Shown one piece after another: positions 33,939 through 51,672 of a stretch of 64,000 bases of DNA. The position numbers and the translations under genes are program-made. The stretch is taken from assembly GCF_900091555.1 (NCBI RefSeq), contig NZ_FMCX01000007.1, positions 124,001-188,000 of the forward strand, written 5' to 3'. The notes below the pieces were generated by a model. That model was not told where the DNA came from, did no database searches, and saw nothing but the letters and a program-made list of their open reading frames with translations. The DNA is from Micromonospora mirobrigensis. GTDB taxonomy: Bacteria > Actinomycetota > Actinomycetes > Mycobacteriales > Micromonosporaceae. Position 1 is the first letter of the stretch. Each line of letters opens with the position of its first letter.

Positions 33939-35480
33939 TCAGTTGACGCTCACCGCGGACCAGGCGGCCGCGACGGTGTTGTACTCGGTGCTGCCGGCGC
34001 CGTACAGGTCCCGGGCGGCCGACAGGGTGGCGGTACGGGCACCGGAGTAGCTGGTCCGCGAGGTCATGTATGTGGTGAGCGCGCGGTACCAGATCGCGCC
34101 GGCCTTGGCGTTGCCGATGCCGGTGACGGTGCTGCCGTTGCAGGTCGGGCTGTTGCCGTACGTCGACGAACCGCTGCCCACCGCGAGCAGGTAGAAGAAG
34201 TGGTTCGCCACGCCCGAGGAGTAGTGCACGTCGAGCCGGCCGACGCCACTGCTGTAGCAGTCCGCCGACGAGCCGTCCTTGGACGGCTTGTCCATGTAGC
34301 GCAGCGGGGTGCCGCTGGAGCGCAGCTTCTCGCCGATCAGGTAGTCACCCGGGTCCTTGGCGTTGTTCGCGTAGAACTCGACCAGGGTGCCGAAGATGTC
34401 GCTGGTGGCCTCGTTGAGGCCACCGGACTCGCCGCTGTAGCGCAGGCCGGCGGTGTTGCTGGTGACGCCGTGGCTCATCTCGTGCCCGGCCACGTCCAGC
34501 GAGGTCAGCGGGTACCAGCCCGAGCCGCCGTCACCGTAGGTCATGCAGAAGCAGGAGTCGCTCCAGAAGGCGTTGGCGTAGTTGCTGCTGTAGTGCACCC
34601 GGCTGTACGCGCCGACGCCGTCGTTGCGGATGCCGCTGCGGCCGAAGGTGTTCTTGTAGTAGTCCCAGGTCTTCTGGGCGCCGTACGCGGCGTCGGCCGC
34701 GGTGGTCTGGCGGTTGCTCAGCGTGCCGTCGCCGAAGACGTTGCCGGCGTTGGTGACCAGGGTGCCGGTGCCGTTGGTGCCACCGTTTAGGTCGTAGGTC
34801 TTGTGCCCGCCTCGGGTGGCGTCGGCGAGCTGGTAGGTGCCGCCGGAGAGGGTGCTGCCAACGGTCACGCTGCCGGAGTGGAAGGTGTTGCCGGTGCCGT
34901 CGCGCTGCACGCCCTCCCAGGAGTCGCGGACCTTGCCGCTGGTGGCGTCCACCAGCACGTGCAGCTCGCTCGGGGTGCCGTCGGCGTAGGCGCCGCCCAC
35001 GACCACCTCGTACGCCAGGGCGGTGCCCCCGGCGGCGGCGTCGTAGACCAGCTGGCTGCCGTCGACGCGGCGGGCGGCGGCGGTGGAGGCGCCCAGCGCG
35101 GTGCGGCCGGCGGCGGCGGCGCTGACCTTGGCCTTGGCGCCCTTGGTCGGGGCGGCGGCCATGGCCTGGCTCGACCCCTTCCAGGCGTTGCCCTTGCCCA
35201 GGTGCACCACGGTGTCGCCGCCGAGGACGGGCAGGCCGTCCTGGTAGCGGTTCAGCCGGACGTGCTCGGTGCCGTTCGCGTCGGTCGCGGTGTTCTTGAG
35301 GGTGAACGACGAGCCGTCGGCGACCAGCCCGGCGCCCGAGTGGGCCTTGAGCTGGGCGACCGCGCGGGTGAACGCGTCACCGGAGACGCCCGGCGCGGCA
35401 CCGGCCGAGGTCGGCGCCGTGACGGCGGCGGCCAGGAGAGCGGCCGTGGCGAGGCCGCTCAGTACAGTGGTACGACGCAT
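33939..35480 (-). CDS. Secreted M4 (thermolysin-family) metallopeptidase
   Basis: A 513-residue exported zinc protease made as a zymogen. A signal peptide (VLSGLATAALLAAAVTAP, ending at AGA) precedes a propeptide of about 170 residues with FTP and PepSY-type regions (VRLNRYQDGLPVLGGDTVVH; LAYEVVVGG). The catalytic domain has the zinc motif DVAGHEMSHGVT, with two His ligands and the catalytic Glu, and the third ligand Glu in GGLNEATSDIFG. The downstream active-site His lies in RLDVHYSSGVANHF. No extra C-terminal binding domain is present. It is expected to degrade external protein. AGGA lies six bases before the ATG. Confidence 0.95.
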   Translation of the reverse strand: MRRTTVLSGLATAALLAAAVTAPTSAGAAPGVSGDAFTRAVAQLKAHSGAGLVADGSSFTLKNTATDANGTEHVRLNRYQDGLPVLGGDTVVHLGKGNAWKGSSQAMAAAPTKGAKAKVSAAAAGRTALGASTAAARRVDGSQLVYDAAAGGTALAYEVVVGGAYADGTPSELHVLVDATSGKVRDSWEGVQRDGTGNTFHSGSVTVGSTLSGGTYQLADATRGGHKTYDLNGGTNGTGTLVTNAGNVFGDGTLSNRQTTAADAAYGAQKTWDYYKNTFGRSGIRNDGVGAYSRVHYSSNYANAFWSDSCFCMTYGDGGSGWYPLTSLDVAGHEMSHGVTSNTAGLRYSGESGGLNEATSDIFGTLVEFYANNAKDPGDYLIGEKLRSSGTPLRYMDKPSKDGSSADCYSSGVGRLDVHYSSGVANHFFYLLAVGSGSSTYGNSPTCNGSTVTGIGNAKAGAIWYRALTTYMTSRTSYSGARTATLSAARDLYGAGSTEYNTVAAAWSAVSVN

Positions 35481-35846
35481 GGAATCCTGCCTTCGCTAGG
35501 ACTGCCGGTCGGGGGGGGTGCCGACCGACGACGATCCGCCGGTCGTGCATGGCGGATCGGTCGAGGTTCCGCAGGTAGCGGGCCACGACGGGGCGCATGG
35601 GGATCGACGTTCGAAAGATCGTCGATGCGCTGTGGCTATTTTTGCGCCTCGCTGCCCTTCCCTGTCACGCCCTTCGGCCAATATTTTTTCCACGAGTTTT
35701 CGCCAGCCGTTCATCGCCGCAGGTCAGGGCCGGTTCCGGCGGGCCGGTGGGGCGCGCGGCGGCCCGAAAATCGACGACTGCACCGGGCAACCGGGGGCGC
35801 CCGCCGACCGGTATCCCCATGCGACAGACGCTGTGGAGGGCTGCCC
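35481..35846. other. Intergenic region between the M4 protease and the SigE-type sigma factor
   Basis: 366 bp without a gene, between divergent genes. CGGTCGG/CCGACCG (35506-35527) is an inverted repeat with a run of G in its loop, just upstream of the protease. An AT-rich stretch near 35634-35700 probably holds promoter elements. GGCAACC (35786-35792) and CGGTAT (35809-35814), 16 bp apart, are a candidate ECF-type promoter for the sigma gene. Confidence 0.5.
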
Positions 35847-36344
35847 GTGACACCACCCGATGGGTTCGACGAGTTCGTGATCAGCCGGTCACCCCGGCTG
35901 CTGCGCACGGCGTACCTGCTGACCCACGACCGCGCCCTCGCCGAGGACCTGCTCCAGACCGCGCTGGCCCGGGCCTGGGAGGCCTGGTCGCGGGTGCAGG
36001 GCGACCCGGAGCCGTACGTGCGCCGGATCCTGGTCAACACGTACGCCTCGTGGTGGCGGCGGCGGTGGAGCGGGGAGCGACCGACCGGGGAGCTGCCCGA
36101 GCCGCCCGCCGAGCCGGACCCGCACAGCCGGTTCGACGACCGCGAGCAGCTCTGGCGGGCGCTGGGCCGGCTGCCCCGGCGGCAGCGGGCGGTGCTGGTG
36201 CTGCGCTACTTCGAGGACCTCTCCGAGACGGAGATCGGCGACACCCTCGGCTGCTCCCCCGGCACCGTGAAGAGCCAGGCCAGCAAGGCCCTGGCGAAGC
36301 TGCGACTGGACGAGACGCTGAGCCCCGAGGGAGCGCTGGCATGA
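35847..36344 (+). CDS. SigE-family (ECF-type) RNA polymerase sigma factor
   Basis: A 165-residue group 4 sigma factor. Region 2 reads RTAYLLTHDRALAEDLLQTA, then LARAWEAWSRV with the core-binding acidic LAEDLLQ. Region 4 has the helix-turn-helix LPRRQRAVLVLRYFEDLSET, then IGDTLGCSPGTVKSQASKAL. GTG 35847 has GGAGGG six bases upstream. Its stop overlaps the next start as ATGA; the partner is a one-helix membrane protein, the usual anti-sigma position. Possible autoregulation through the GGCAACC/CGGTAT promoter is inference. Confidence 0.9.
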   Translation: MTPPDGFDEFVISRSPRLLRTAYLLTHDRALAEDLLQTALARAWEAWSRVQGDPEPYVRRILVNTYASWWRRRWSGERPTGELPEPPAEPDPHSRFDDREQLWRALGRLPRRQRAVLVLRYFEDLSETEIGDTLGCSPGTVKSQASKALAKLRLDETLSPEGALA

Positions 36345-37585: not shown

Positions 37586-39334
37586 ATGACCGACGACCTG
37601 CGCGACGGCCCCGGCGACCCGGTGGGCCGGGTGCTGGGCACGGCCGACGCCACCCCGTTGCAGTTCTGGACGGCCGTCTCCCCGGACAGCTACCTCCAGC
37701 TCGACGACGTGGTGGTGACCCGCCGTGAGCTGCCCGACCGGGAGCCGGTGACGATCGCCGGGGTGGTCACCCAGGTCCGGGCCCGGCACGAGGGCGCCCA
37801 GTTCGACTCCGACGTCTTCGCCATCGCCGACGGCACCCTCCCGGCCCAGGTGCAGGAGGCCGCGGAGATCACCACCACCCGGGTCGACCCGGAGTTCTAC
37901 GTCCCGCCGGCGCCCGGCGCCACCGTCTACCGGGCGGAGGGCGACGCCCGGGCCCGGGCACTGCACTTCGACCGGATGGAGCGGCGCGTCCCGATGGGGA
38001 TGGGCCGCGACGGCGTCCCGGTCTACCTCAACGCCGACTTCCTCGACGGCACCCGGGGCGCGCACGTCTCGATCTCCGGCATCTCCGGGGTCGCCACCAA
38101 GACCAGCTTCGCCACCTTCCTGCTCTACTCGGTCTTCCGCTCCGGGGTGCTCGGCGGCGACGCGGTCAACGCCAAGGCGTTGATCTTCAATGTCAAGGGC
38201 GAGGACCTGCTCTTCCTCGACCACCCCAACGCCCGCCTCGACGACCCGACCCGCGCCGCGTACGCGAAGCTCGGGCTCGACGCCGGGGCCTTCCCCGACG
38301 TGCGGGTGTACGCCCCGCCCCGGGTCGGCGACTCCTCCGGCACGCCCGACGTGTCCAGCCGGCTCACCGGCGTGGACAGCTTCTACTGGACGCTGACCGA
38401 GTTCTGCGCCGACCGCCTGCTGCCCTACGTCTTCGCCGACGCCGACGACGAACGCCAGCAGTACACGATGGTGGTCCACTCGGTCGCCGCCCACCTGGCC
38501 CGCCATGCCCAGCCGGCCGACGGCGGGGTGAGCATCGACGGGGTCCGGCTCGGGACGTACGCCGACCTGGTCGACCACGTCGTCGAGCAGCTCAACGACG
38601 ACGAGACCCGCGCCGACTGGGCCGGCAGCGCGGTCGGGCTGGGCACGGTCAACGCGTTCGCCCGTCGGTTGATCAACAGCAAGAAGGACCTCGGCCGGCT
38701 GATCCGGGGCGACCTGGCCACCCGCCGCCCGCACTCGATCAACACCACGGAGAGCGCCCAGGTCACGGTGGTCGACCTGCACAACCTGCCGGACCGGGCG
38801 CAGCGGTTCGTGGTCGGCGTGACGCTCAAGAGCGAGTTCGAGCGCAAGGAGAAGGCCGGCACCGCCAAGCCGCTGCTCTTCGTCGTCCTCGACGAGCTCA
38901 ACAAGTACGCCCCCCGCGAGGGCTCCTCCCCGATCAAGGAGGTGCTGCTGGACATCGCCGAGCGGGGCCGCTCGCTCGGGGTGATCCTGGTCGGCGCCCA
39001 GCAGACCGCGAGCGAGGTGGAGCGCCGGATCGTCACCAACTCGGCGATCCGGGTGGTCGGCCGGCTCGACCCGGCCGAGGCGTCCCGCCCGGAGTACGGC
39101 TTCCTCCCGCCGGCCCAGCGCCAGCGGGCGCTGCTGGCCAAGCCGGGCACCATGTTCGTCAACCAGCCGGACATCCCGGTCCCGCTCTGCCTGGAGTTCC
39201 CCTTCCCCGCCTGGGCGACCCGGGTCTCCGAGGCGGGCCGGCCACCCTCGCAGACGCTGCGCTCGATCACCCAGTCCGCCGACCCGTTCGCGGTGGTCGG
39301 CTCGGGCTCCGCCGACGACGACATCCCGTTCTAG
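37586..39334 (+). CDS. herA: HerA-like DNA-translocating ATPase
   Basis: A 582-residue HerA/FtsK-superfamily ATPase. An N-terminal beta-rich part (about 15-110, VGRVLGTADATPLQFWTAV) resembles the HAS barrel of HerA. The nucleotide site is ISGISGVATKTSFA (about 163-176), a modified P-loop keeping the KTS, and Walker B is LLFVVLDELNKYAP. Sensor and arginine regions lie in LVGAQQTASEVERRI and the following GRLDPAEASRPEYGF. HerA forms a hexameric ring that pumps DNA to the NurA nuclease. SbcD, SbcC and a NurA-like gene follow immediately. ATG 37586 has GGAG seven bases upstream. A HerA-type defence ATPase is the alternative reading. Confidence 0.82.
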   Translation: MTDDLRDGPGDPVGRVLGTADATPLQFWTAVSPDSYLQLDDVVVTRRELPDREPVTIAGVVTQVRARHEGAQFDSDVFAIADGTLPAQVQEAAEITTTRVDPEFYVPPAPGATVYRAEGDARARALHFDRMERRVPMGMGRDGVPVYLNADFLDGTRGAHVSISGISGVATKTSFATFLLYSVFRSGVLGGDAVNAKALIFNVKGEDLLFLDHPNARLDDPTRAAYAKLGLDAGAFPDVRVYAPPRVGDSSGTPDVSSRLTGVDSFYWTLTEFCADRLLPYVFADADDERQQYTMVVHSVAAHLARHAQPADGGVSIDGVRLGTYADLVDHVVEQLNDDETRADWAGSAVGLGTVNAFARRLINSKKDLGRLIRGDLATRRPHSINTTESAQVTVVDLHNLPDRAQRFVVGVTLKSEFERKEKAGTAKPLLFVVLDELNKYAPREGSSPIKEVLLDIAERGRSLGVILVGAQQTASEVERRIVTNSAIRVVGRLDPAEASRPEYGFLPPAQRQRALLAKPGTMFVNQPDIPVPLCLEFPFPAWATRVSEAGRPPSQTLRSITQSADPFAVVGSGSADDDIPF

Positions 39335-39352
39335 AAGGGCCAGGCGTATCCC

Positions 39353-40501
39353 GTGAAGATCCTGCACACCTCGGACTGGCACGTCGGCAAGGTCCTCAAG
39401 GGCCGGTCCCGGCTGGACGAGCAGAAGCAGGTGCTGGCCGGGGTGATCGAGATCGCCCGGGCGGAACGCCCCGACCTGGTGATCGTCGCCGGTGACCTCT
39501 ACGACACCGCCGCGCCGACCCCGGAGGCGACCCGGCTGGTCACCCGGGCGCTGACCGCGCTGCGCCGCACCGGCGCGGACGTGCTGGCCATCGGCGGCAA
39601 CCACGACAACGGTCAGGCCCTCGACGCGCTGCGCCCCTGGGCCGAGGCGGCCGGGATCGTGCTGCGCGGCAGCGTCCGGGAGGATCCGGCCGAGCACGTG
39701 ATCGACGGGGTGACCGCCGACGGCGAACGCTGGCAGGTGGCCGCGCTGCCGTTCCTGTCCCAGCGGTACGCCGTCCGCGCCGTGGAGATGTACGACCTGA
39801 CCCCCGCCGAGGCCAACCAGACCTACGCCGACCACCTGGGTCGGCTGCTGGGCCGGCTCACCGAGGGGTTCACCGAGCCGGACCGGGTGCACCTGGTCAC
39901 CGCCCACCTGACAGTGGTCGGGGCGAGCACCGGCGGCGGCGAGCGGGACGCGCACACCGTGCTCGGCTACGCCGTACCGGCCACGGTCTTCCCGGGCAAC
40001 GCCCACTACGTCGCGCTGGGCCACCTGCACCGCTCGCAGCGGGTGATCGGGCCCTGCCCGGTGCGCTACAGCGGCAGCCCGCTCGCGGTCGACTTCGGCG
40101 AGCAGGAGAACATCCCGTCGGTGACCCTGGTCGAGGTGACCGCCACCACCGCCGCGCAGATCCGCGAGGTGCCGGTGCCGGCGGCCGTGCCGCTGCGTAC
40201 GGTGCGGGGCACCCTGGCCCAGCTCGCCGAGGCCGAGGCCCCGGAGGGCTGGCTGCGGGTGTTCGTCCGCGAGCAGCCCCGGGCCGGGCTGCGCGAGGAG
40301 GTGCAGGAGCTGCTCCCCAACGCGCTGGAGATCCGGATCGACCCGGAGCTGGTCCCCGCCCCGGGCAGCGGCACCCGCACCGCCCAGCGGGCCGGCCGCT
40401 CCCCCCGGCAGCTGTTCGGCGACTACCTGGACAGCAAGGGCCACACCGACCAGGGCGTCCGGGAGCTCTTCGACGAGCTCCTCGAGGGGGTCGAGCGCTG
40501 A
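39353..40501 (+). CDS. sbcD: SbcD (Mre11-type) exonuclease subunit
   Basis: A 382-residue manganese-dependent phosphoesterase that cuts DNA ends as a complex with SbcC. The metal-binding motifs appear in order: HTSDWHVGK, VAGDLYD, GGNHDNG, TAHLTV and LGHLHRSQ. A C-terminal capping region of about 120 residues follows, ending in LFDELLEGVER. GTG 39353 lies 18 bp after herA. The stop overlaps the SbcC start as TGATG, so the two subunits are coupled. Confidence 0.94.
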   Translation: MKILHTSDWHVGKVLKGRSRLDEQKQVLAGVIEIARAERPDLVIVAGDLYDTAAPTPEATRLVTRALTALRRTGADVLAIGGNHDNGQALDALRPWAEAAGIVLRGSVREDPAEHVIDGVTADGERWQVAALPFLSQRYAVRAVEMYDLTPAEANQTYADHLGRLLGRLTEGFTEPDRVHLVTAHLTVVGASTGGGERDAHTVLGYAVPATVFPGNAHYVALGHLHRSQRVIGPCPVRYSGSPLAVDFGEQENIPSVTLVEVTATTAAQIREVPVPAAVPLRTVRGTLAQLAEAEAPEGWLRVFVREQPRAGLREEVQELLPNALEIRIDPELVPAPGSGTRTAQRAGRSPRQLFGDYLDSKGHTDQGVRELFDELLEGVER

Positions 40502-42975
40502 TGCGCCCGATGCGGCTGGACCTGGCGGGCTTCACCGTCTTCCGCGACGAGACCACCGTCGACTTCACCGACGCCGACTTCTTCGCCCTGGTCGGGCCGA
40601 CCGGTTCGGGCAAGTCCACGGTGCTGGACGCGATCTGCTTCGCCCTCTACGGCACGGTGCCCCGCTGGGGCGGCGCGCGCGGGCTGGCCAATGCGCTGGC
40701 CCCGTCGGCCACCGAGGCCCGGGTGCGGCTGGTCTTCGAGTCCGCCGGCGCACGCTACGTGGCCACCCGGGTGGTGCGCCGGGACAGCCGGGGCAACGTC
40801 AAGACCGCCGGCGCCGGGCTCCAGCTGATGCCGGACGGCTTCGACGTCACCAAGCTGGACACCGGGCTCAGCCCCGAGGACCTGGGCGAGGTGATGGCCG
40901 GCACGGCCGCCGAGATGGAGGCGGCGGTACTGGCCGCGGTGGGGCTGCCGTACGAGCAGTTCACCAGCTGCGTGGTGCTGCCCCAGGGCCAGTTCGCCGA
41001 CTTCCTGCACGCCAAGCCGGCCACCCGGCAGCAGATCCTGGTGAACCTGCTGGGGCTGGGCGTCTACGAGGACGTGCAGAAGCGGGCCACCGAGCGGGCC
41101 GGCCAGGCGGAGGCTCGGCTGGACGAGGTGGACCGGATGCTCGCCGGGCTGGCCGACGTCGACGACGAGGCGCTGGCGACGGCCACCGGCCAGGTGGCCC
41201 GGATGCGGGAGCTGACCGCGGCGGTCGAGGCGGCCGTACCCGAGCTGGAGGAGGCCCGGGGGGCGGTCCGCGAGGCGGGGGCGGCGCTGGCGGCGCTCGA
41301 CGCCGACCTGGCCGGGCTGGCCGGGGTGCGCTCCCCCGCCGGGGTCGCCGAGGTGGCCCACGCGGTCACCTCCGCGCAGGCCGACGCCGACCGGGCGACG
41401 GCCGCGGTGGCGCTGGCCGAGGAGCGGGAGGAGAAGCTCCGCGGCGAGCTGGCCGGCGCGGGCGACGAGAGCACGCTGCGGCTGCTGCTCAGGGCGTACG
41501 CCGACCGGGACCGGCTGACCGCGGAGGCCGGCACGGTCCGCTCGGCGCTGGATGCCGCGCAGCGGGAACACGACGCGGCGGCGACGGCGCTCGGCGCGGC
41601 CCGGGACGCGGCGGCCCGCGCCGAGGCGGAGCTGGAGGCGGCGTTCCGGGCGCACGAGGAGGCAAAGGCGACCGACCAGGCCGTCGCGTTGCGGGCGCAC
41701 CTGAGCGCGGGGGCGCCCTGCCCGGTCTGCGAGCAGCCGGTCGGCGCGGTGCCGCCGGTGCCGGCCGGTTCGGCGGTGGCCGCGGCGACCGCCGCCGGGA
41801 AGAAGGCACGGGCCGCCGCCCAGGCGGCGCAGGCGCTGGTGGCGGAGCGGGACGCGGCGGCCCGCGACCTGGACCGGGTGCTGGTGCGGGCCCGCGCCCA
41901 GCACGACCAGCTGCGGTCCCGGCTGGCCGAGCTGGACGGGCAGCTCGCCGGGGCGGCCACCCCGGAGGCGCTGCACGCGGCGCTGGCCGAGCAGGCCCGG
42001 CTGCGCACGGCGCTGGACGAGGCGGGCGCGGCGGTCCGCGGCGGTCGGGACGCCGCCCGGCGGGCCCGGGGCGGCCTGGACGCGGCGCAGGAGCGGCTGC
42101 GCACCGCCTGGCGGGACTTCGACGCCACCCGCGACGGGCTGGCCCGGTTCGGCCCGCCGGCCGCGGACCGCGATGACGTGGCCGCCGCCTGGACGGCGCT
42201 GGTCGACTGGGCCGACGGGCAGGCCGGGCAGCGGCGCGCCGAGCGGGCCGGGCTGGCCGCCACAGTCACCGGCGCCGAGGCGGCGGCGGCCGCCGTGCGG
42301 GAGCGGATCGGCGGGTTGCTCGCCGACGCCGGCCTGCCGCCGGCCGACGACCCGGTCCGGGCGGTCGCGGTGGCGGCGGAGCGGGCCGAGGCGGCGCACC
42401 GCCGGCTGGAGGAGCGCCGGGCGCAGGCCGCGGAGCTGCACACCCAGCGCGACGAGCACCGCAACGCCGCCCAGGTGGCCCGGGCGCTGGCCGGGCACCT
42501 GCGGGCCAACAACTTCGAGCGGTGGCTGCTCGCGGAGGCGTTGGACCTGTTGGTCGACGGGGCCTCGCGGATCCTGCGCGAGCTGTCCCAGGGCCAGTAC
42601 GACCTGGTCCACGACAAGGGCGAGTTCTTCGTGGTCGACCACCACGACGCGGGGCTGCGCCGGGCGGTGCGCACCCTCTCCGGCGGCGAGACCTTCCAGG
42701 CGTCGCTGGCCCTGGCGCTGGCCCTGTCGGAGCAGCTGGCCGGGCTCTCCACCACCGCCGCCAGCCTGGAGTCGATCGTGCTGGACGAGGGCTTCGGCAC
42801 CCTGGACGCGGCCAGCCTGGACACGGTGGCGGCCACCCTGGAGGGTCTGGCGGCGCGCGGCGACCGGATGGTCGGCGTGGTCACCCACGTGCCGGCGCTG
42901 GCCGAACGCATCCCGGTCCGCTTCGAGGTCCGCAAGGACGCCCGTACAGCCCGCGTGGAACGGACGGGCCTTTGA
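40501..42975 (+). CDS. sbcC: SbcC (Rad50-type) SMC-like ATPase subunit
   Basis: An 824-residue ATPase of the SMC/Rad50 type. Walker A is LVGPTGSGKSTVLDAICFAL at the N-terminus, the Q-loop region is VLPQGQFADFLHAKP, and the zinc hook is CPVCEQPV near residue 407. The signature is LSGGETFQASLALALAL and Walker B is SIVLDEGFGTLD. Ala/Arg-rich heptad coiled coils flank the hook. It is shorter than E. coli SbcC (about 1050 residues), so its arms are short. It partners SbcD to remove hairpins and blocked ends. NurA follows at once. Confidence 0.94.
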   Translation: MRPMRLDLAGFTVFRDETTVDFTDADFFALVGPTGSGKSTVLDAICFALYGTVPRWGGARGLANALAPSATEARVRLVFESAGARYVATRVVRRDSRGNVKTAGAGLQLMPDGFDVTKLDTGLSPEDLGEVMAGTAAEMEAAVLAAVGLPYEQFTSCVVLPQGQFADFLHAKPATRQQILVNLLGLGVYEDVQKRATERAGQAEARLDEVDRMLAGLADVDDEALATATGQVARMRELTAAVEAAVPELEEARGAVREAGAALAALDADLAGLAGVRSPAGVAEVAHAVTSAQADADRATAAVALAEEREEKLRGELAGAGDESTLRLLLRAYADRDRLTAEAGTVRSALDAAQREHDAAATALGAARDAAARAEAELEAAFRAHEEAKATDQAVALRAHLSAGAPCPVCEQPVGAVPPVPAGSAVAAATAAGKKARAAAQAAQALVAERDAAARDLDRVLVRARAQHDQLRSRLAELDGQLAGAATPEALHAALAEQARLRTALDEAGAAVRGGRDAARRARGGLDAAQERLRTAWRDFDATRDGLARFGPPAADRDDVAAAWTALVDWADGQAGQRRAERAGLAATVTGAEAAAAAVRERIGGLLADAGLPPADDPVRAVAVAAERAEAAHRRLEERRAQAAELHTQRDEHRNAAQVARALAGHLRANNFERWLLAEALDLLVDGASRILRELSQGQYDLVHDKGEFFVVDHHDAGLRRAVRTLSGGETFQASLALALALSEQLAGLSTTAASLESIVLDEGFGTLDAASLDTVAATLEGLAARGDRMVGVVTHVPALAERIPVRFEVRKDARTARVERTGL

Positions 42976-42983
42976 CCGGGCCG

Positions 42984-43958
42984 GTGAGCGCGCCCGCGCC
43001 GCGGTTCTTCGTGGACGCGTGGGATCCGGCGTACGGCGCGTCGTTCGAGGCGGCGGCCGGTGGACCGGCGGCCCCGAGCAGCGCCCAGGTCGAGGCCGAC
43101 GCCGAGCTGCCGGCCGTCGACTGGCGGGCGATCGACGTCCGGCCCGGGGTGGTGGCCCCGGACGTGGTGCTGCTGGTCGACGGGGTACGCCGGATCGACG
43201 CCTCGGTCTGGACGGCCGAGGAGGACGGCGCGTCCTTCCCCGGCATCGCCGCCTCGTACGCGGCCGGGGTGGTCCGCTGCGACCTGGAACGGGGCGCCGC
43301 GGAGCTGGCCGGTGCCCGGGTCGGGCGGGGCCTGTTCACCGCCAGCCCGTCGGCGGAGGAGGTGGTCTGCGGCCAGGTGCGCTACCCGGTGCACCGGGTC
43401 GGCGGCACCGGGGAGCTGAGCAAGCTGCCGGCCGCGGTGCAGGGGCCGCTGACCGCGCTGGAGGTGGCGGTCTCCGACGCGGCGCGTACCGACGGGGACC
43501 TGCTGGTCGTGGACGGGCCGCTGCGCAGCCGCCGGCAGCTGCCCCGGACGCTGGGCTACATCAAGACCCAGCACAGCCAGTACCTGGACGCCCGGCTCAC
43601 CGCGGTGGTCACCGGCCTGCGACCGGGCCAGCGCTGCCCGGTGTTCAAGCTCGGCACCGCCTGGGGTGGCTGGTCGTGGTATCTCCGCCTGCCGGTGGCG
43701 GTGGGCGCGCCCTGGGCCGGCATCGTCCGGATGGAGTGCTCGGCCGACCTGACCGTGGCCGAGGCGGTGGAGCTGGCCGACCTGTCCCTGGTCACCCTCC
43801 CCCGGTTCGCCTCGACGCCGTACAAGGACCCGCGGGCCCCGCAGAACCTGATCCCGATCGCCGGGCTGGAGCGGCGGCTGCGCGGTCTGCTCGGCGACGC
43901 CCGGCTGCTGCACCGGGCGCTGAACACGGCCGCCCGGGCCGGCGGGCTGCGGCGCTGA
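42984..43958 (+). CDS. nurA: NurA-like DNA-end nuclease
   Basis: A 324-residue protein matching the NurA pattern. It has the motif VLLVDGVRRIDA with the first catalytic Asp, the central LLVVDGPLRSRRQLPRTLGY with the second Asp, and the IKTQHSQYL segment. The C-terminal Asp/Gln region YKDPRAPQNLIPIAGLERRL is also seen. NurA is the 5'-3' nuclease driven by HerA in archaea and in Deinococcus. The start is GTG 42984, or TTG 42972, which overlaps the sbcC stop as TTGA. The stop overlaps the next ATG as TGATG. Family assignment rests on motifs plus the HerA-SbcD-SbcC context. Confidence 0.8.
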   Translation: MSAPAPRFFVDAWDPAYGASFEAAAGGPAAPSSAQVEADAELPAVDWRAIDVRPGVVAPDVVLLVDGVRRIDASVWTAEEDGASFPGIAASYAAGVVRCDLERGAAELAGARVGRGLFTASPSAEEVVCGQVRYPVHRVGGTGELSKLPAAVQGPLTALEVAVSDAARTDGDLLVVDGPLRSRRQLPRTLGYIKTQHSQYLDARLTAVVTGLRPGQRCPVFKLGTAWGGWSWYLRLPVAVGAPWAGIVRMECSADLTVAEAVELADLSLVTLPRFASTPYKDPRAPQNLIPIAGLERRLRGLLGDARLLHRALNTAARAGGLRR

Positions 43959-44815
43959 TGGGGCGTAAACGTTCCACCGACCGGGTGGTCGAGCAGGTCG
44001 ACACCGGCCGGGCCGAGCTGGTGCCGGATCCGGACCGCCCGCGGTCGTACACGTTGCTCCTCGACGGCGCGCCGCAGTCGCACGTGGACCTGGCCGACCC
44101 GACCTACCTGGAGTTCGAGTACGTCCGGCGGCTCGCCGCCGCCCTGGACCTCGTCGCCCCGGCCGGGGCGCCGCTGCGGGTGCTGCACCTGGGTGGCGGC
44201 GCGCTGACCCTGCCCCGCTACGTGGCCGCCACCCGACCGGGTTCCGCCCAGCGGGTGTCCGAGGTGGACGGCGCGCTGGTGGAGCTGGTCCGCCGGGAGC
44301 TGCCCTGGCCCGCCGACGCGCGGATCCGGGTACGCGTCGACGACGCCCGGGCCACCGTCGCGTCCACCCGCGACGCCAGCTACGACGTGGTGGTCGCCGA
44401 CGTCTTCGCCGGCGCCCGCACCCCGGCCCACCTGACCAGCGTGGAGTTCGCCGCCGAGGTGGCCCGGGTGCTGCGTCCGGACGGCTGCTACCTGGCCAAC
44501 GTCGCCGACGGGCCGCCGCTGCGGCACGCCCGCGCGCAGGTGGCCACGGTACGTTCGGTGCTGCCCCGGGCCTGCCTGGTCGCCGACGCGGCCGTGCTGC
44601 GCGGGCGCCGGTACGGCAACCTGGTGCTGGTCGCGAGCCGGGTCGAGCCGCCGGTGCCGGAGCTGACCCGGCGGGCCGCCGGCGACTGGTTCCCCGGCCG
44701 GGTGCTGGCCGGGGCGGAGCTGGACCGGTTCGCCTCCGGCGCACCTGTGGTACGCGACGTCGACGCCACCGACTCCACCCCACCGCCGCCGGGGATTTTT
44801 TCCGTCCGCCGTTGA
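43958..44815 (+). CDS. Spermidine-synthase-like methyltransferase-fold protein
   Basis: A 285-residue protein of the spermidine synthase/fused SpeE family. The decarboxylated-SAM or SAM-binding glycine region is VLHLGGGALTLPRYVA. The YLEFEYVRRL segment, VSEVDGALVELV (acidic after strand 2) and VVVADVFAGARTPAHLTSVE follow the family layout. It lacks clear polyamine-site residues, so aminopropyl or methyl transfer is uncertain. It is coupled to nurA by a TGATG overlap and is the last gene of the operon. Neighbours at this position could be incidental or could supply polyamine to the DNA-repair complex; no evidence decides. Confidence 0.72.
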   Translation: MGRKRSTDRVVEQVDTGRAELVPDPDRPRSYTLLLDGAPQSHVDLADPTYLEFEYVRRLAAALDLVAPAGAPLRVLHLGGGALTLPRYVAATRPGSAQRVSEVDGALVELVRRELPWPADARIRVRVDDARATVASTRDASYDVVVADVFAGARTPAHLTSVEFAAEVARVLRPDGCYLANVADGPPLRHARAQVATVRSVLPRACLVADAAVLRGRRYGNLVLVASRVEPPVPELTRRAAGDWFPGRVLAGAELDRFASGAPVVRDVDATDSTPPPPGIFSVRR

Positions 44816-45034
44816 TCCGTTCGGCGCGGCGCTGCGTACCACCGGGCGGCCATGCCCGTGGGGGCCGGCTGATGTCATTCGACACCGGAGGTCTGCATGC
44901 ACGCGGTGGCGGCCGGCTGGCACGGCGACATGGTGCGGCCCGAGTGGATGTCCGCCCGGGCCCAACCGCAGTCGCGCGCGTCCAGGTCCGGTCGGGGGGT
45001 CGACGCACGTCCCACCGACCGCCAGAATGACCCG

Positions 45035-45595
45035 GTGACGCCCCGACCGGCGCCCGGGCGCCACCAGGCGACGTCCACCGAGGCCAGTCATTCCGACCAG
45101 TTGGTCCGGCTGCTCTACGCCGAGCACGCGGGACCGTTGCTGGCCTTCGTGATGCGGCTGACCGGCGGTGACCGGCAGCGCGCCGAGGACATCGTGCAGG
45201 AGACGCTGCTGCGTGCCTGGCGCAACGCGCACCGGCTGGGCGTGCAGGGCCAGGGTTCGCTGCGGCCGTGGCTGGTGACGGTGGCCCGCCGGATCGCCAT
45301 CGACGAGCACCGCAGTGAGCAGGCCCGGCCGGCGGAGACGTACGACCGGGACCTGACGGCGTTCGCCGAGGCGGACAGCACCGACCGGGTGTTGCGCACG
45401 ATGACGATGGCCGACGCGCTGCGTACGCTGAGCCAGTCCCACCGGGAGATCCTGGTGGCGACGTACTTCCGGGGCCGGACGGTGCCGGAGGCGGCCGAGG
45501 AGTTGGGCCTTCCGCTCGGCACCGCCAAGTCGCGGGTCTACTACGCGTTGCGCGCGCTGCGCACGGCTCTGCAGGAGAGGGGGGTGACGGAATGA
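45035..45595 (+). CDS. ECF-family RNA polymerase sigma factor
   Basis: A 186-residue group 4 sigma factor. Region 2 reads LLYAEHAGPLLAFVMRLTGG, then RAEDIVQETLLRAWRNAHRL. Region 4 reads LSQSHREILVATYFRGRTVP, then EEAAEELGLPLGTAKSRVYY-type helix-turn-helix sequence. The stop overlaps the next gene, which encodes its zinc anti-sigma factor. Start choice is uncertain. GTG 45035 gives a compact protein but has no good ribosome-binding site. ATG 44897 in the same frame has a perfect GGAGG five bases upstream (44887-44891) and would add 46 low-complexity residues. Confidence 0.9.
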   Translation: MTPRPAPGRHQATSTEASHSDQLVRLLYAEHAGPLLAFVMRLTGGDRQRAEDIVQETLLRAWRNAHRLGVQGQGSLRPWLVTVARRIAIDEHRSEQARPAETYDRDLTAFAEADSTDRVLRTMTMADALRTLSQSHREILVATYFRGRTVPEAAEELGLPLGTAKSRVYYALRALRTALQERGVTE

Positions 45596-46374
45596 GCCGG
45601 GCCGACCACATGGACGTCGCCGCGTACGCGCTCGGCGTGCTGGACCAGCAGGACACCGAACGGTTCGAGGAGCACCTCGCCACCTGCTGGGCGTGCGCCG
45701 CCGAGCTGGAGACCATGGTGCCGGTGGTGGGGCTGCTCTCCGGCATCGACGGCGAGACGATGATGGCGCTGGAGCAGACGGCGACGGATCCGGCCCTGCT
45801 GGACCGTACGCTGGTCGCGGTCCGGGCGCACCGGCGGCGTTCCCGGATGCGCCAGGTCCTCGCCACGGCCGCCGCGGTGGTGGCGGTCGCCGGGGTGACC
45901 GGGGTGGGTGTCGCCACCCTCAGCGACTCTCCCGCGCCGCCGCAGGCGCTGCCGACGGTCCAGCCGACCGGGCCGGTCGACGAGCCGACGCCGGGGCCGA
46001 CCCGCTCCGGGCCGGGGGTGGGCGGGCCGAGCGAGGTGCCGGAGGTCGACCCGATCAGCCGGACCGATCCGGCCACCGGGGTGAAGGCCGACCTGTGGCT
46101 GGAGTCGAAGGAGTTCGGCACGGCGATCAGCTTCAACCTGAGCCGGCTGCCGGGCCCGCGGACCTGCCGGATGGTGGTGATCCGCAAGAACGACACCACC
46201 GAGGTGCTCTCCAGCTGGTCGGTGCCGGGCACCGGCTACGGGACGAACACCAATCCGCAGCCGTTGCAGTTGCAGGCATCCACCTCCGCGGCGCGGGCGG
46301 ACATCGCCCGGGTGCAGGTCGAGTCGGTGGACGCGAACGGGGTGGCGAGCCCGCTGGTGGCGTTCCCACTGTAG
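45592..46374 (+). CDS. Zinc-containing anti-sigma factor (ZAS) with an extracellular domain
   Basis: A 260-residue membrane protein. The N-terminal cytoplasmic zinc domain has HxxxCxxC in EEHLATCWACAAELE, which binds and holds the upstream ECF sigma factor. One membrane helix follows (VLATAAAVVAVAGVTGVGVA), then a Pro-rich linker and an extracellular domain of about 120 residues ending in VASPLVAFPL. The start overlaps the sigma-factor stop by four bases. The outer domain lets the pair respond to a signal at the cell surface; the signal is unknown. Confidence 0.9.
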   Translation: MSRADHMDVAAYALGVLDQQDTERFEEHLATCWACAAELETMVPVVGLLSGIDGETMMALEQTATDPALLDRTLVAVRAHRRRSRMRQVLATAAAVVAVAGVTGVGVATLSDSPAPPQALPTVQPTGPVDEPTPGPTRSGPGVGGPSEVPEVDPISRTDPATGVKADLWLESKEFGTAISFNLSRLPGPRTCRMVVIRKNDTTEVLSSWSVPGTGYGTNTNPQPLQLQASTSAARADIARVQVESVDANGVASPLVAFPL

Positions 46375-47582: not shown

Positions 47583-48503
47583 GTGACCCCGACCGATCCC
47601 GTGGCGACCCGGGAGCTGCGCCCGCCGCCCGGCTACCGGCTGGCCGCGACGGTGCACGCCCTGACCTTCAGCCCCTACGACCCGTGCGCCCGGATCGCCG
47701 CCGGCACCTTCTGGCTCGCCCTGCGCACCCCGGCCGGCCCGGCCACGCTCTGCCTGCGCCCGGCCGCCGGCGCCCTGGTCGCCGAGGGGTACGGCCCGGG
47801 CGGCGGGTGGCTGGTGGAGCGGGCCGACGCGATCGCCGGGCTCCGCGACGACCTCACCGGGTTCGCCGAGCTGGCCGCCGGGCACCCGGTGGTGGCCCGC
47901 CTCGCCGCCGCGCACCAGGGTCTGCGGATGCCCGCCACCGGGGTGGTGTTCCCCCGGGTGCTGCGCGCGATCTTCGAGCAGAAGGTCACCGGCAAGGAGG
48001 CCTACCGGGCGTACGCGGCGACCGTCCGGCACTTCGGCGAGGCGGCGCCGGGGCCGCTGCAACCGCTGCTGCTGCCGCCGGAGCCGGCAGCGGTGGCCGC
48101 CGCGCCGTACTGGGTCTTCCACCCGTTCGGGGTGGAGCAGCGCCGCGCCGACACGCTGCGCCGGGCCGCCGCGCTGGCCGACCGGCTCCAGCGGTGCGCC
48201 GACGCGGCGGAGGCGACCCGTCGGCTGACCGCCGTCCCGGGCATCGGCCCGTGGACCGCCGCCGAGGTGGTCCGGGTCGCGTACGGCGATCCGGACGCGG
48301 TGAGCGTGGGCGACTACCACGTGCCGAACACGGTGGCCTGGGCGCTGGCCGGCGAGGCGCGGGGAGACGACGCCCGGATGCTGGAGCTGCTGGAGCCGTT
48401 CCGCGGCCACCGCGGCCGGGTCTGCGTGCTGCTGGCCGCCGCCGGGATCCACGCGCCGCGCTACGGACCGCGGGCCTCGATCCGCTCCTTCGCCCGCTTC
48501 TGA
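47583..48503 (+). CDS. DNA-3-methyladenine glycosylase II family protein (AlkA-type)
   Basis: A 306-residue HhH-GPD base-excision glycosylase that removes alkylated bases. The helix-hairpin-helix is LTAVPGIGPWTAAEVVRVAY, and the catalytic Asp follows in VSVGDYHVPNTVAW. The FEQKVTGKEAYRAYAATVRH region precedes it, as in AlkA. GTG 47583 is where similarity begins. No ada-type regulator is adjacent, but a perfect palindrome lies just upstream. The lack of the AlkA N-terminal TATA-like domain in full is uncertain, because residues 1-110 are divergent. Confidence 0.88.
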   Translation: MTPTDPVATRELRPPPGYRLAATVHALTFSPYDPCARIAAGTFWLALRTPAGPATLCLRPAAGALVAEGYGPGGGWLVERADAIAGLRDDLTGFAELAAGHPVVARLAAAHQGLRMPATGVVFPRVLRAIFEQKVTGKEAYRAYAATVRHFGEAAPGPLQPLLLPPEPAAVAAAPYWVFHPFGVEQRRADTLRRAAALADRLQRCADAAEATRRLTAVPGIGPWTAAEVVRVAYGDPDAVSVGDYHVPNTVAWALAGEARGDDARMLELLEPFRGHRGRVCVLLAAAGIHAPRYGPRASIRSFARF

Positions 48504-49193: not shown

Positions 49194-49691
49194 GTGACCG
49201 TCGAGACGATCATCGCCCCGGCCGGCGTCGACGACGCCGGCGAGATCCTCACCGTGCAGCGGGCCGCGTACCTGGTCGAGGCGCAGCGCTACGCCGACCC
49301 GTTCCTGCCGCCGTTGACCGAGACCCTGGACGAGGTGGTGGCCGCGCTGACCGACCCCGCCGTCGTGGTGCTGGCGGCCCGGCACGGCACCCGGCTGGTC
49401 GGCTCGGTCCGCGGCCGGGCCGACGGGGAGGTCGCCCACGTCGGCCGGCTCGCCGTGGCGCCCGACCAGCAGGGCCGCGGGGTGGGTGGTCGGCTGCTGG
49501 CCGCCCTGGAGGCCGCGTACGGCGGCCGGGTGGCCCGCTTCGCGCTCTTCACCGGCGCCGACAGCGCGGAGAACCTGCGGCTCTACCACCGCACCGGTTA
49601 CCGGGTGGTCGGCCACCGGCCGGACCCGAACGGGATCCGGCTGGCGCTGCTGGAGAAGCCGGCGGTCAGCCCTGCTCGCAGCGACGCTTGA
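49194..49691 (+). CDS. GNAT-family N-acetyltransferase
   Basis: A 165-residue acetyltransferase. The acetyl-CoA motif is RLAVAPDQQGRGVGGRLLAA, and the C-terminal strand-loop is ADSAENLRLYHRTGYRVVGH. The substrate is not recognisable. GTG 49194 was chosen as the start of homology. The last 26 bases overlap the 3' end of the convergent SRPBCC gene. Confidence 0.87.
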   Translation: MTVETIIAPAGVDDAGEILTVQRAAYLVEAQRYADPFLPPLTETLDEVVAALTDPAVVVLAARHGTRLVGSVRGRADGEVAHVGRLAVAPDQQGRGVGGRLLAALEAAYGGRVARFALFTGADSAENLRLYHRTGYRVVGHRPDPNGIRLALLEKPAVSPARSDA

Positions 49692-50088
49692 GGCCGTCGG
49701 CCTCCAGCCGCAGGTAGCGCTGGAACAACCCACCGCCGAGGCGACCGGCCAGCCCGGCCAGCGGGCCGCTCATCTCGGCGCTCAGCACCACCCGTACCCG
49801 GCCGTCGGGCAGCGGCTCCAGCCGGTGCTCGGCGAGGGTACGCACGCCCGGGCTGCGCGAGACCCACCGGAAGAAGTGCGGCTCGACCAGCTCGGTGACC
49901 CGCCAGACCGCGGGTCGCAGCCGGGGCTGCTCGATCCGGGCCGCCGAGCCGACGGTGAACGGGCCGGCGTCCAGCCGGCGGGCCCGGGTGACCGAGGGCG
50001 TCCACTCCGCCCAGCGCTCGACGTCGACCGTCACCGCCCAGATCCGCTCCCGCGTTGCGGCCACCTCGGACGTCGCCTCGAACCGCAT
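49666..50088 (-). CDS. SRPBCC-family (polyketide cyclase/START-like) protein
   Basis: A 140-residue helix-grip protein: ATSEVAATRERIWAVTVDVE and RWAEWTPSVTRARRLDAGPF at the N-terminus, then SAARIEQPRLRPAVWRVTEL, and a long C-terminal helix FQRYLRLEADGLKRRCEQG. Such proteins bind hydrophobic ligands; a specific role cannot be named. It overlaps the 3' end of the convergent acetyltransferase gene by 26 bp. Confidence 0.85.
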   Translation of the reverse strand: MRFEATSEVAATRERIWAVTVDVERWAEWTPSVTRARRLDAGPFTVGSAARIEQPRLRPAVWRVTELVEPHFFRWVSRSPGVRTLAEHRLEPLPDGRVRVVLSAEMSGPLAGLAGRLGGGLFQRYLRLEADGLKRRCEQG

Positions 50089-50199
50089 GGGCCCCTCCCT
50101 CGCCGGTCGCCGGGAACCTGCCGCCGCGCTCGGGTGGCCGTTGCGGCGAGCGTAACGCCGGACGTCGATCCGCGTCGTCCCCCACCTGCCGGGACCAGG

Positions 50200-50427
50200 T
50201 CAGCCCGCTTCGCGCAGGTCGGTCTCGTGCAGGTCGGCCAGGCCGATCGGGGTACGCCGGGCCAGCAGCTCCGCCAGCTCGGTCACCGAGCCGGCCTCAC
50301 CGAGCACGTTCCGGCCGCCGCCGTGTTCGGGGCGGTAGCGGTGCGACAGCCGGTACCGGTGGCGGCCACGGATCAGCTCCACGCTCACCCGCCAGCGGCC
50401 ACAGCACCCGCAGACCCACTCCCGCAT
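50200..50427 (-). CDS. Small conserved Cys-containing protein
   Basis: A 75-residue protein starting MREWVCGCCGRWRVSVELIR. It has a CxCC cluster at residues 6-9, a basic centre rich in Arg and Tyr (RYRLSHRYRP), and an acidic end (LADLHETDLREAG). I do not recognise a family. The start-proximal Cys cluster and the even codon use, with G or C in nearly all third positions, support a real gene. It is divergent from the ligase gene, about 135 bp away. Confidence 0.6.
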   Translation of the reverse strand: MREWVCGCCGRWRVSVELIRGRHRYRLSHRYRPEHGGGRNVLGEAGSVTELAELLARRTPIGLADLHETDLREAG

Positions 50428-50562
50428 CCGGCGAAGGTAGCTCTGACCTGGGCGGATGCGATCCGCCCGGAGGGGACGAGGTGGGCCGGGGCGGGACACG
50501 CCGCCCGGCGGGCCAAGGTGATGTGCCTCACGACTGTCGGTGGCGTCTGGTTGACTGTCGCC

Positions 50563-51672
50563 GTGGACCTGCCGATCACTCCGCCGGTCGAGCCGATGCT
50601 GGCCAAGAGCGTTCCCCGCCTGCCCACCGCCGACGGCATGACCTACGAGCCGAAGTGGGACGGCTTCCGCCTCATCATCTTCCGCGACGGCGACGAGGTC
50701 GAGCTGGCCAGCCGGGGCGGCAAGACGATGACCCGCTACTTCCCCGAGGTGGTCGAGCAGGCCCGTCGACAGCTGCCGCAGCGGTGCGCGGTCGACGGCG
50801 AGCTGATCGTCATCCGCCGGGACGGTCCCGACGGCCAGCCCCGGCTCGACTTCGAGCTGCTCGCCCAGCGGATCCACCCGGCCGCCTCCCGGGTGAAGCT
50901 GCTCGCCGAGACCACGCCGGCCGACTTCGTCGCCTTCGACCTGCTCGCCCTCGACGACGAGGTGCTGCTCGACCAGCCGTACCCGGTCCGGCGGGCCCGG
51001 CTGGAGGCGGCGCTGGCCGGGGTCCGCCCACCGGTGCACGTCACCCAGGTGACCACCGACCCGGAGACCGCGCGTCGCTGGTTCGACGTCTTCGAGGGCG
51101 CCGGGCTCGACGGGCTGATCGCCAAGCCGGCCGACCTGCCGTACGAGCCGGGCAAGCGGCTGATGTTCAAGGTCAAGCACGCGCGCACCGCCGACGTGGT
51201 GGTGGCCGGTTTCCGCTGGCACAAGTCCGGCCCGGTGGTGGGTTCGCTGCTGCTCGGCCTCTACGACGAGGGCGGGCTGCTGCACCACATCGGGGTCAGC
51301 TCGTCGTTCACCGCGGCCCGCCGCAAGGAGCTGCTCACCGAGTTGGAGCCCTACCGCGACGTCGGGAGCGACCATCCCTGGGTGCACGGCGACCACGAGC
51401 GGGGCCAGCGGATCCCGGGCGGGGTCAGCCGGTGGACCGGCACGAAGAACCTGGAGTGGGAGCCGCTGCGACCGGAGCTGGTGGCCGAGGTCGGCTACGA
51501 CGCGATGGAGGGCGACCGGTTGCGGCACACCGCGCAGTTCGTCCGCTGGCGGCCCGACCGGGATCCCCGCTCCTGCGGCTACGACCAGCTCGACCGCCCG
51601 ATCCGCTACGACGTGGACCAGGTCCTGCGCGGTGACCCCGCGGCGACCGTGGAGCCGGGGCCGGGCCGGTAG
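50563..51672 (+). CDS. ATP-dependent DNA ligase (LigC-like)
   Basis: A 369-residue ligase. The adenylated Lys is in motif I, YEPKWDGFRLIIF, followed by motif III (FVAFDLLAL), motif IV (GLDGLIAKP) and motif V (LMFKVKHARTADVVV). An OB-fold C-terminal part follows. Its length and lack of polymerase or nuclease domains match the actinobacterial LigC class, used in backup or end-joining repair. A separate LigD-type polymerase lies 12 kb away on the other strand. The start is GTG 50563, at the first conserved residues (DLPITPPVEPMLAKS). Confidence 0.9.
   Translation: MDLPITPPVEPMLAKSVPRLPTADGMTYEPKWDGFRLIIFRDGDEVELASRGGKTMTRYFPEVVEQARRQLPQRCAVDGELIVIRRDGPDGQPRLDFELLAQRIHPAASRVKLLAETTPADFVAFDLLALDDEVLLDQPYPVRRARLEAALAGVRPPVHVTQVTTDPETARRWFDVFEGAGLDGLIAKPADLPYEPGKRLMFKVKHARTADVVVAGFRWHKSGPVVGSLLLGLYDEGGLLHHIGVSSSFTAARRKELLTELEPYRDVGSDHPWVHGDHERGQRIPGGVSRWTGTKNLEWEPLRPELVAEVGYDAMEGDRLRHTAQFVRWRPDRDPRSCGYDQLDRPIRYDVDQVLRGDPAATVEPGPGR

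What the first reader, a model, noticed from the sequence alone, without database searches (positions are those of the whole stretch)
37586..44815. A bacterial HerA-SbcD-SbcC-NurA operon, extended by a spermidine-synthase-like gene
HerA-like ATPase, Mre11 (SbcD), Rad50 (SbcC) and a NurA-like nuclease lie in one operon with gaps or overlaps of 18, -1 and about +8 bp. This is the gene set of archaeal DNA-end resection. In most bacteria sbcD and sbcC occur without herA and nurA. The HerA P-loop is changed (GISGVATKTS) and SbcC is short, so the machine may differ from both the archaeal one and E. coli SbcCD. A fifth coupled gene of the SpeE family is not part of any archaeal operon I know. Either this is a complete bacterial resection motor or it has become a defence system against foreign DNA.
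Basis: partly seen in the sequence, partly recalled or inferred. Interest (0 to 1): 0.8.

Follow-up and report, generated by a model that had tools for sequence, protein, structure and literature searches.

The report
Actinobacterial HerA-SbcD-SbcC-NurA DNA-end-resection operon
A soil actinomycete carries, on its chromosome, an intact four-gene set for trimming broken DNA ends that is best known from archaea; it is widespread in actinobacteria, so it is a real but largely familiar repair operon, and the fifth gene beside it is only a neighbour.

Summary
Window 37586-43958 (a Micromonospora chromosome) encodes HerA, SbcD (Mre11), SbcC (Rad50) and NurA, coupled tightly. HerA and NurA match the solved Deinococcus radiodurans HerA-NurA complex by sequence and by predicted fold, and the residues shown to be essential there are conserved. 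The 'changed' P-loop GISGVATKTS is the normal P-loop of this HerA branch: its lysine is drHerA K175, which contacts ADP in a crystal structure. SbcC at 824 aa is the lineage norm (median 828).

HerA occurs in 81 of 81 Micromonosporaceae and in 94 of 396 sampled Actinomycetota. In 59 of 66 mapped loci all four genes lie together, as HerA-SbcD-SbcC-NurA or NurA-HerA-SbcD-SbcC. Four more loci are cut by contig ends.

The SpeE-like gene sits directly downstream in only 18 of 81 Micromonosporaceae. It is a paralogue with an atypical active-site motif, not part of the machine.

Best reading: a vertically inherited chromosomal end-resection operon. It is a new member of a known kind; a Thermales species was already reported with a similar gene set. 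Defence is not supported for this locus. A lead is that plasmid-borne versions in other phyla lie beside ImmA/IrrE peptidases.

The parts
37586..39334 (+). herA: hexameric HerA/FtsK-type DNA translocase, Deinococcus type, 582 aa
   Evidence: phmmer to drHerA 7f6d E 6e-148; AF2 model pLDDT 89 matching 7wrw TM 0.88
38078..38107 (+). HerA Walker A GISGVATKTS (K172 = drHerA K175, T173 = T176)
   Evidence: G165, G168, T171, K172 invariant in 62 homologues; alignment; PMC9960219
38882..38914 (+). HerA Walker B VVLDELNKYAP (D436/E437 = drHerA D487/E488)
   Evidence: PMC9960219
39353..40501 (+). sbcD (mre11): nuclease subunit, 382 aa, motifs DWHVG, GDLYD, GGNHD, ALGHLH intact
   Evidence: TIGR00619 E 3e-50; motif positions
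40501..42975 (+). sbcC (rad50): ABC/SMC ATPase, 824 aa, Walker A GPTGSGKST, zinc hook CPVC (41719-41730), signature LSGGE, Walker B
   Evidence: TIGR00618 E 3e-77
42984..43958 (+). nurA: RNase H-fold nuclease, 324 aa; D66, K194, R284 = essential D53, K201, R309 of drNurA
   Evidence: profile to 7f6d_H E 7e-57 and 1zup E 4e-26; AF2 pLDDT 91.6, Foldseek 7f6d_G E 7e-18
43958..44815 (+). speE-like gene (spermidine-synthase fold); neighbour, not part of the conserved operon
   Evidence: NF037959 E 1e-31; 3gjy E 2e-45; directly adjacent in 18/81 family members

Best explanation
This is a chromosomal, vertically inherited double-strand-break end-processing operon. Proposed mechanism: SbcC-SbcD bind a broken, blocked or hairpin end and nick it. 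A HerA hexamer with a NurA dimer then loads on the end and HerA pumps the duplex by ATP hydrolysis. A pin near the NurA N-terminus splits the strands and NurA cuts mainly the 5' strand, leaving a 3' tail for RecA. It acts beside the cell's AdnAB-type helicase-nuclease. The SpeE-like gene is an unrelated neighbour in one part of the family. Shown here: gene identities, intact catalytic residues, conserved linkage, distribution, presence of an AdnAB-like pair. Inferred from Deinococcus and archaeal work: the complex, the polarity and the biological role. Not tested: physical contact between SbcCD and HerA-NurA in any actinobacterium.
For: HerA and NurA both find the same solved complex as best hit by sequence and by fold. 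Residues whose mutation kills drNurA (D53, K201, R309), the drHerA Walker B pair (D487/E488, mutation abolishes ATPase) and the nucleotide-binding drHerA K175 are conserved; D66, K194, R284 are invariant in 60 NurA and K172, D436, E437 in 62 HerA (PMC9960219). The four genes are together in 59 of 66 actinobacterial loci in two orders, with 4 more cut by contig ends, and in 17 of 19 further divergent Micromonosporaceae loci in full. HerA is in 81/81 Micromonosporaceae with RibD-like synteny upstream. Evolutionary distances of the four proteins correlate at r 0.90-0.95. It holds the genome's only SbcC match.
Against: No experiment. In D. radiodurans, deleting nurA and herA did not sensitise cells and raised resistance to UV and mitomycin about ten-fold (PMC9960219), so a repair role in bacteria is not proven. 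The genome also has an AdnAB-like pair, so the operon may be secondary. The matrix correlations partly reflect shared phylogeny. Foldseek did not return archaeal NurA within its significant hits; the archaeal link rests on PF09376 in relatives and on HerA.
Confidence: 0.8

Rival explanations
1. The operon is a defence system that degrades invading linear DNA, like HerA-based Nezha, HerA-DUF4297 or TdpAB systems.
For: HerA is a motor in several defence systems and shares the fold. The NurA model weakly matches the TdpAB complex (its antiphage role is from general knowledge). Plasmid-borne relatives sit beside ImmA/IrrE peptidases, and one beside TIGR02680/TIGR02678/DUF2397 genes that look like a Wadjet cluster.
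Against: PADLOC matches to HerA are weak and local. The locus is present in every family member examined and syntenic. Distant HerA homologues occur in only 2 of 50,697 phage records, 3 of 2.9 million viral contigs and 6 of 72,556 plasmid records, one of which is a chromosome-sized replicon. No recurrent defence neighbour in the chromosomal loci.
Confidence: 0.1
2. The SpeE-like protein is a true fifth component, for example supplying or modifying polyamines that protect DNA ends.
For: One-base overlap with nurA in the window and adjacency in Micromonospora, Salinispora and several other genera.
Against: Directly adjacent in only 18 of 81 family genomes (9 of 44 genera); elsewhere on other contigs, megabases away or divergent. 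Absent from loci outside the family. Beside a glycosylase-like gene instead in two loci. Three homologues in the genome. The motif ADVFAGA replaces the D-x-x-D of true aminopropyltransferases.
Confidence: 0.06
3. HerA-NurA here is not a general resection machine but a limited end- or fork-processing brake, as the Deinococcus deletion phenotype suggests, while AdnAB does most resection.
For: Deinococcus deletion strain is more resistant to damage (PMC9960219); an AdnAB-like pair is present.
Against: All catalytic residues and the coupling to the only SbcCD are conserved, which favours active processing.
Confidence: 0.2

Closest known systems
Deinococcus radiodurans HerA-NurA (PDB 7f6d, 7wrw, 7wrx; PMC9960219)
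   Same: Same HerA P-loop, Walker B and NurA active-site residues; same folds; HerA 48-49% identical in the structural alignment
   Different: [quoted passage not shown] here sbcD-sbcC lie between herA and nurA
Archaeal herA-mre11-rad50-nurA operon (Sulfolobus islandicus, PMC4351679)
   Same: Same four functions in one operon; the order is listed there as herA, mre11, rad50, nurA
   Different: Archaeal HerA about 13-15% identical with TM 0.5-0.6; essential for viability there, unknown here; bacterial SbcCD rather than archaeal Mre11-Rad50 subfamily
Oceanithermus profundus herA (hepA) with sbcD-sbcC downstream (PMC5448004)
   Same: A bacterial HerA cluster with SbcD and SbcC, read as an archaeal-like break-repair set
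   Different: Thermales, not actinobacteria; the paper reports the sbcD and sbcC genes downstream of hepA
HerA-based defence complexes (HerA-SIR2/Nezha, HerA-DUF4297)
   Same: HerA motor fold
   Different: Partners are SIR2 or DUF4297, not NurA and SbcCD; HerA only 11-16% identical

Membership tests
HerA-NurA end-resection complex | HerA motor with HAS barrel, RecA-like core, Walker A lysine and Walker B acidic pair | tested here: met
   Full-length match to drHerA E 6e-148, fold TM 0.88, K172/D436/E437 invariant
HerA-NurA end-resection complex | NurA RNase H-fold nuclease with catalytic Asp plus Lys and Arg | tested here: met
   D66, K194, R284 align with drNurA D53, K201, R309; invariant in 60; fold match
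HerA-NurA end-resection complex | herA and nurA genetically linked to mre11/sbcD and rad50/sbcC | tested here: met
   59 of 66 loci hold all four together; 4 more cut by contig ends
HerA-NurA end-resection complex | 6:2 complex with ATP-dependent 5'-strand resection | not testable with these tools
   Needs purified proteins
SbcCD / Mre11-Rad50 | Phosphoesterase motifs, ABC ATPase head, zinc hook | tested here: met
   TIGR00619, TIGR00618; motifs including CPVC
Archaeal NurA proper | Match to archaeal NurA structures or PF09376 | tested here: inconclusive
   PF09376 in 38 of 60 relatives at E<=1 but not the window protein; no archaeal NurA among significant Foldseek hits
Known HerA defence systems (PADLOC) | Full-length match to a defence HerA model and its partner gene | tested here: not met
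   Only weak local matches, no partner
Polyamine aminopropyltransferase (SpeE) | Active-site D-x-x-D motif and equivalog score | tested here: not met
   ADVFAGA in place of VDGSDP; far below equivalog cut-offs

The most novel reading that the evidence does not exclude
The bacterial HerA-NurA-SbcCD set has two lives. One is a chromosomal copy in actinobacteria whose main job is something other than bulk resection, for example foreign-DNA destruction or fork processing. The other is a mobile copy regulated by an ssDNA-sensing ImmA/IrrE peptidase and a sigma factor, seen on plasmids of Aulosira and Chlorohelix.
Probability: 0.12. Interest if true: 0.65.

Novelty: new member of a known kind. Interest (0 to 1): 0.38.

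Why it matters
The literature read here describes HerA-NurA as present in only a few bacteria (PMC4663267), yet this survey finds HerA of this type, nearly always with NurA and SbcCD where the neighbourhood was mapped, in 64 of 236 sampled actinobacterial genera and in every Micromonosporaceae genome examined. What HerA-NurA does in bacteria is unsettled, because the Deinococcus deletion does not sensitise cells. Micromonospora carries the complete archaeal-like set together with an AdnAB-like pair, so it and its relatives would allow a direct genetic test of which machine resects breaks.

Tried and rejected
Degenerate P-loop: rejected, it is conserved and functional in drHerA. Short SbcC as a sign of a different machine: 824 aa is close to the lineage median of 828; HerA-less actinomycetes have SbcC of roughly 1000-1160 aa (from match spans), but some HerA-positive lineages also exceed 1000 aa, so no firm link. 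SpeE as a component: rejected. SOS control: no LexA-type box upstream of herA, and the window count was not above chance. Promoter scan: nothing. PF12705 as a marker of AdnAB loss in HerA-positive genomes: too widespread to discriminate (360 of 396). Genes inserted between herA and sbcD in some lineages: heterogeneous, no recurrent family. The IMG/VR scan with the plasmid-type HerA found nothing. The Iyer 2004 review of the FtsK-HerA superfamily is not held, so I could not check what it says about actinobacteria.

Full report
Where it is. The window lies in a 6.17-Mb genome (G000:C9:124001-188000) whose closest loci are all Micromonospora and relatives.

What the genes are. SbcD and SbcC are plain by NCBIfam, and their catalytic motifs, including the CPVC zinc hook, are intact. 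HerA and NurA of the window have no significant Pfam hit, but phmmer against the PDB finds the solved D. radiodurans complex: HerA at E 6e-148, NurA at E 1e-19. A profile of 60 actinobacterial NurA proteins reaches drNurA at E 7e-57 and the NurA-like TM1739 at E 4e-26. AlphaFold2 models are confident (pLDDT 91.6 and 89.3). The NurA model's best PDB match is drNurA (E 7e-18, TM 0.69). The HerA model's best matches are drHerA (TM 0.88), then Thermococcus and Sulfolobus HerA. Archaeal NurA structures were not among the significant Foldseek hits, but PF09376 (NurA) is hit by 38 of the 60 relatives at E<=1, best 6e-7.

The P-loop. GISGVATKTS differs from the textbook Walker A, but drHerA has the same motif. 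Counting along the alignment, its lysine is K175 and the next residue T176, which the paper reports contacting the beta-phosphate and Mg, and the Walker B pair is D487/E488 (PMC9960219). In 62 homologues G165, G168, T171, K172, D436 and E437 are invariant, and 49 of 50 HerA in complete operons fit G-x-[ST]-G-x-x-[TS]-K-T. The motif is therefore a branch signature, not decay. In NurA, D66, K194 and R284 align with drNurA D53, K201 and R309 once a 20-residue offset of the PDB chain is allowed for (the offset is inferred from all three matching at once); the paper reports that mutating these abolishes nuclease activity. All three are invariant in 60 sequences.

Is the association real? HerA occurs in 81 of 81 Micromonosporaceae genomes from 44 genera and in 94 of 396 sampled Actinomycetota, 64 of 236 genera. 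In 66 mapped loci, 59 hold all four genes on one strand: 24 with NurA last and 35 with NurA first (one locus of the 24 is listed in another order because of an over-long SbcC open frame). Four of the other seven are cut by contig ends (L130, L138, L171, L174). Three are real departures within the stretch read (L129, L161, L175). In 19 further divergent Micromonosporaceae loci, 17 show all four in the window's order, one is cut in nurA by the edge of the stretch read, and one shows HerA alone within 14 kb. Among 50 complete sets, SbcD and SbcC are within 30 nt of each other in 49; HerA and SbcD in 27, with unrelated inserts in some lineages. Pairwise distances of the four proteins correlate at 0.90-0.95, which is expected of co-inherited genes but also of shared phylogeny.

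The fifth gene. The SpeE-like gene follows nurA directly in only 18 of 81 family genomes; elsewhere it is far away, on other contigs or divergent. It is absent from the loci mapped outside the family. In L198 and L205 it lies beside the glycosylase-like gene rather than beside nurA. The genome has three homologues. Its nearest solved relative is 3gjy, deposited as a spermidine synthase (E 2e-45), and the D-x-x-D of true aminopropyltransferases reads ADVFAGA (the role of that motif is from general knowledge). I treat it as a neighbour.

How it most likely works. SbcCD recognises and nicks ends; a HerA hexamer and NurA dimer then translocate and cut mainly the 5' strand, as shown for the Deinococcus enzyme (PMC9960219). 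The Trp near the drNurA pin (W8) has a likely counterpart in the conserved N-terminal DAWDPAYG of the window protein (by position, not by structure superposition). The genome also holds an AdnAB-like pair of UvrD-type helicases, one with an AddB-type nuclease end. So the operon is an addition to AdnAB, not its replacement, in this organism.

Defence. PADLOC gives only weak local hits. HerA relatives occur in 2 of 50,697 phage records, 3 of 2.9 million viral contigs and 6 of 72,556 plasmid records, one of them an 11.9-Mb replicon. The Micromonosporaceae locus keeps its RibD-like neighbour even in distant genera. This speaks for a housekeeping role. The few plasmid copies are interesting in their own right. 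Aulosira (Cyanobacteriota) and Chlorohelix (Chloroflexota) plasmids share sigma factor, small protein, ImmA/IrrE peptidase, NurA, HerA, SbcD, SbcC. A Streptomyces plasmid has HerA-SbcD-SbcC-NurA next to an ImmA/IrrE gene and genes named TIGR02680, TIGR02678 and DUF2397, which I recognise from memory as Wadjet-like. NurA was confirmed in each by profile.

Novelty. The set is known in archaea (PMC4351679), the HerA-NurA pair in Deinococcus (PMC9960219), and HerA next to SbcD-SbcC in Oceanithermus (PMC5448004). The actinobacterial breadth was not found in the papers searched, but the library is partial. I file it as a new member of a known kind.

Noticed in passing
L229 3856-13170, L231 3660-12972: Plasmids of Chlorohelix (Chloroflexota) and Aulosira (Cyanobacteriota) share a seven-gene run: sigma factor, small protein, ImmA/IrrE peptidase, NurA, HerA, SbcD, SbcC. 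It may be a mobile, damage-regulated version of this operon.
   Followed up: partly
L227 1-16465: A Streptomyces linear plasmid carries HerA-SbcD-SbcC-NurA beside an ImmA/IrrE gene and TIGR02680/TIGR02678/DUF2397 genes that look like a Wadjet-type defence cluster.
   Followed up: partly
window 34803-36344 and 44897-46374: Sigma-70-family (ECF-like) sigma factors flank the operon on both sides; the downstream one is followed by a zinc-finger anti-sigma-like gene.
   Followed up: no
window 49486-51672: ATP-dependent DNA ligase (PF01068, PF04679) a few kb downstream of the operon; a probable DNA glycosylase-like gene lies between (about 47600-48503, judged by eye).
   Followed up: no
L162, L163, L165, L166, L167, L170, L183: One actinobacterial family (f32) has a divergent HerA (about 30% identical, P-loop GMSGLSTKTS), and many of its genomes lack an AddB-type PF12705 nuclease; HerA-NurA may replace AdnAB there.
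   Followed up: partly
L230 4951-7659: Marinitoga camini virus 1 carries a NurA-HerA pair without SbcCD beside it.
   Followed up: no
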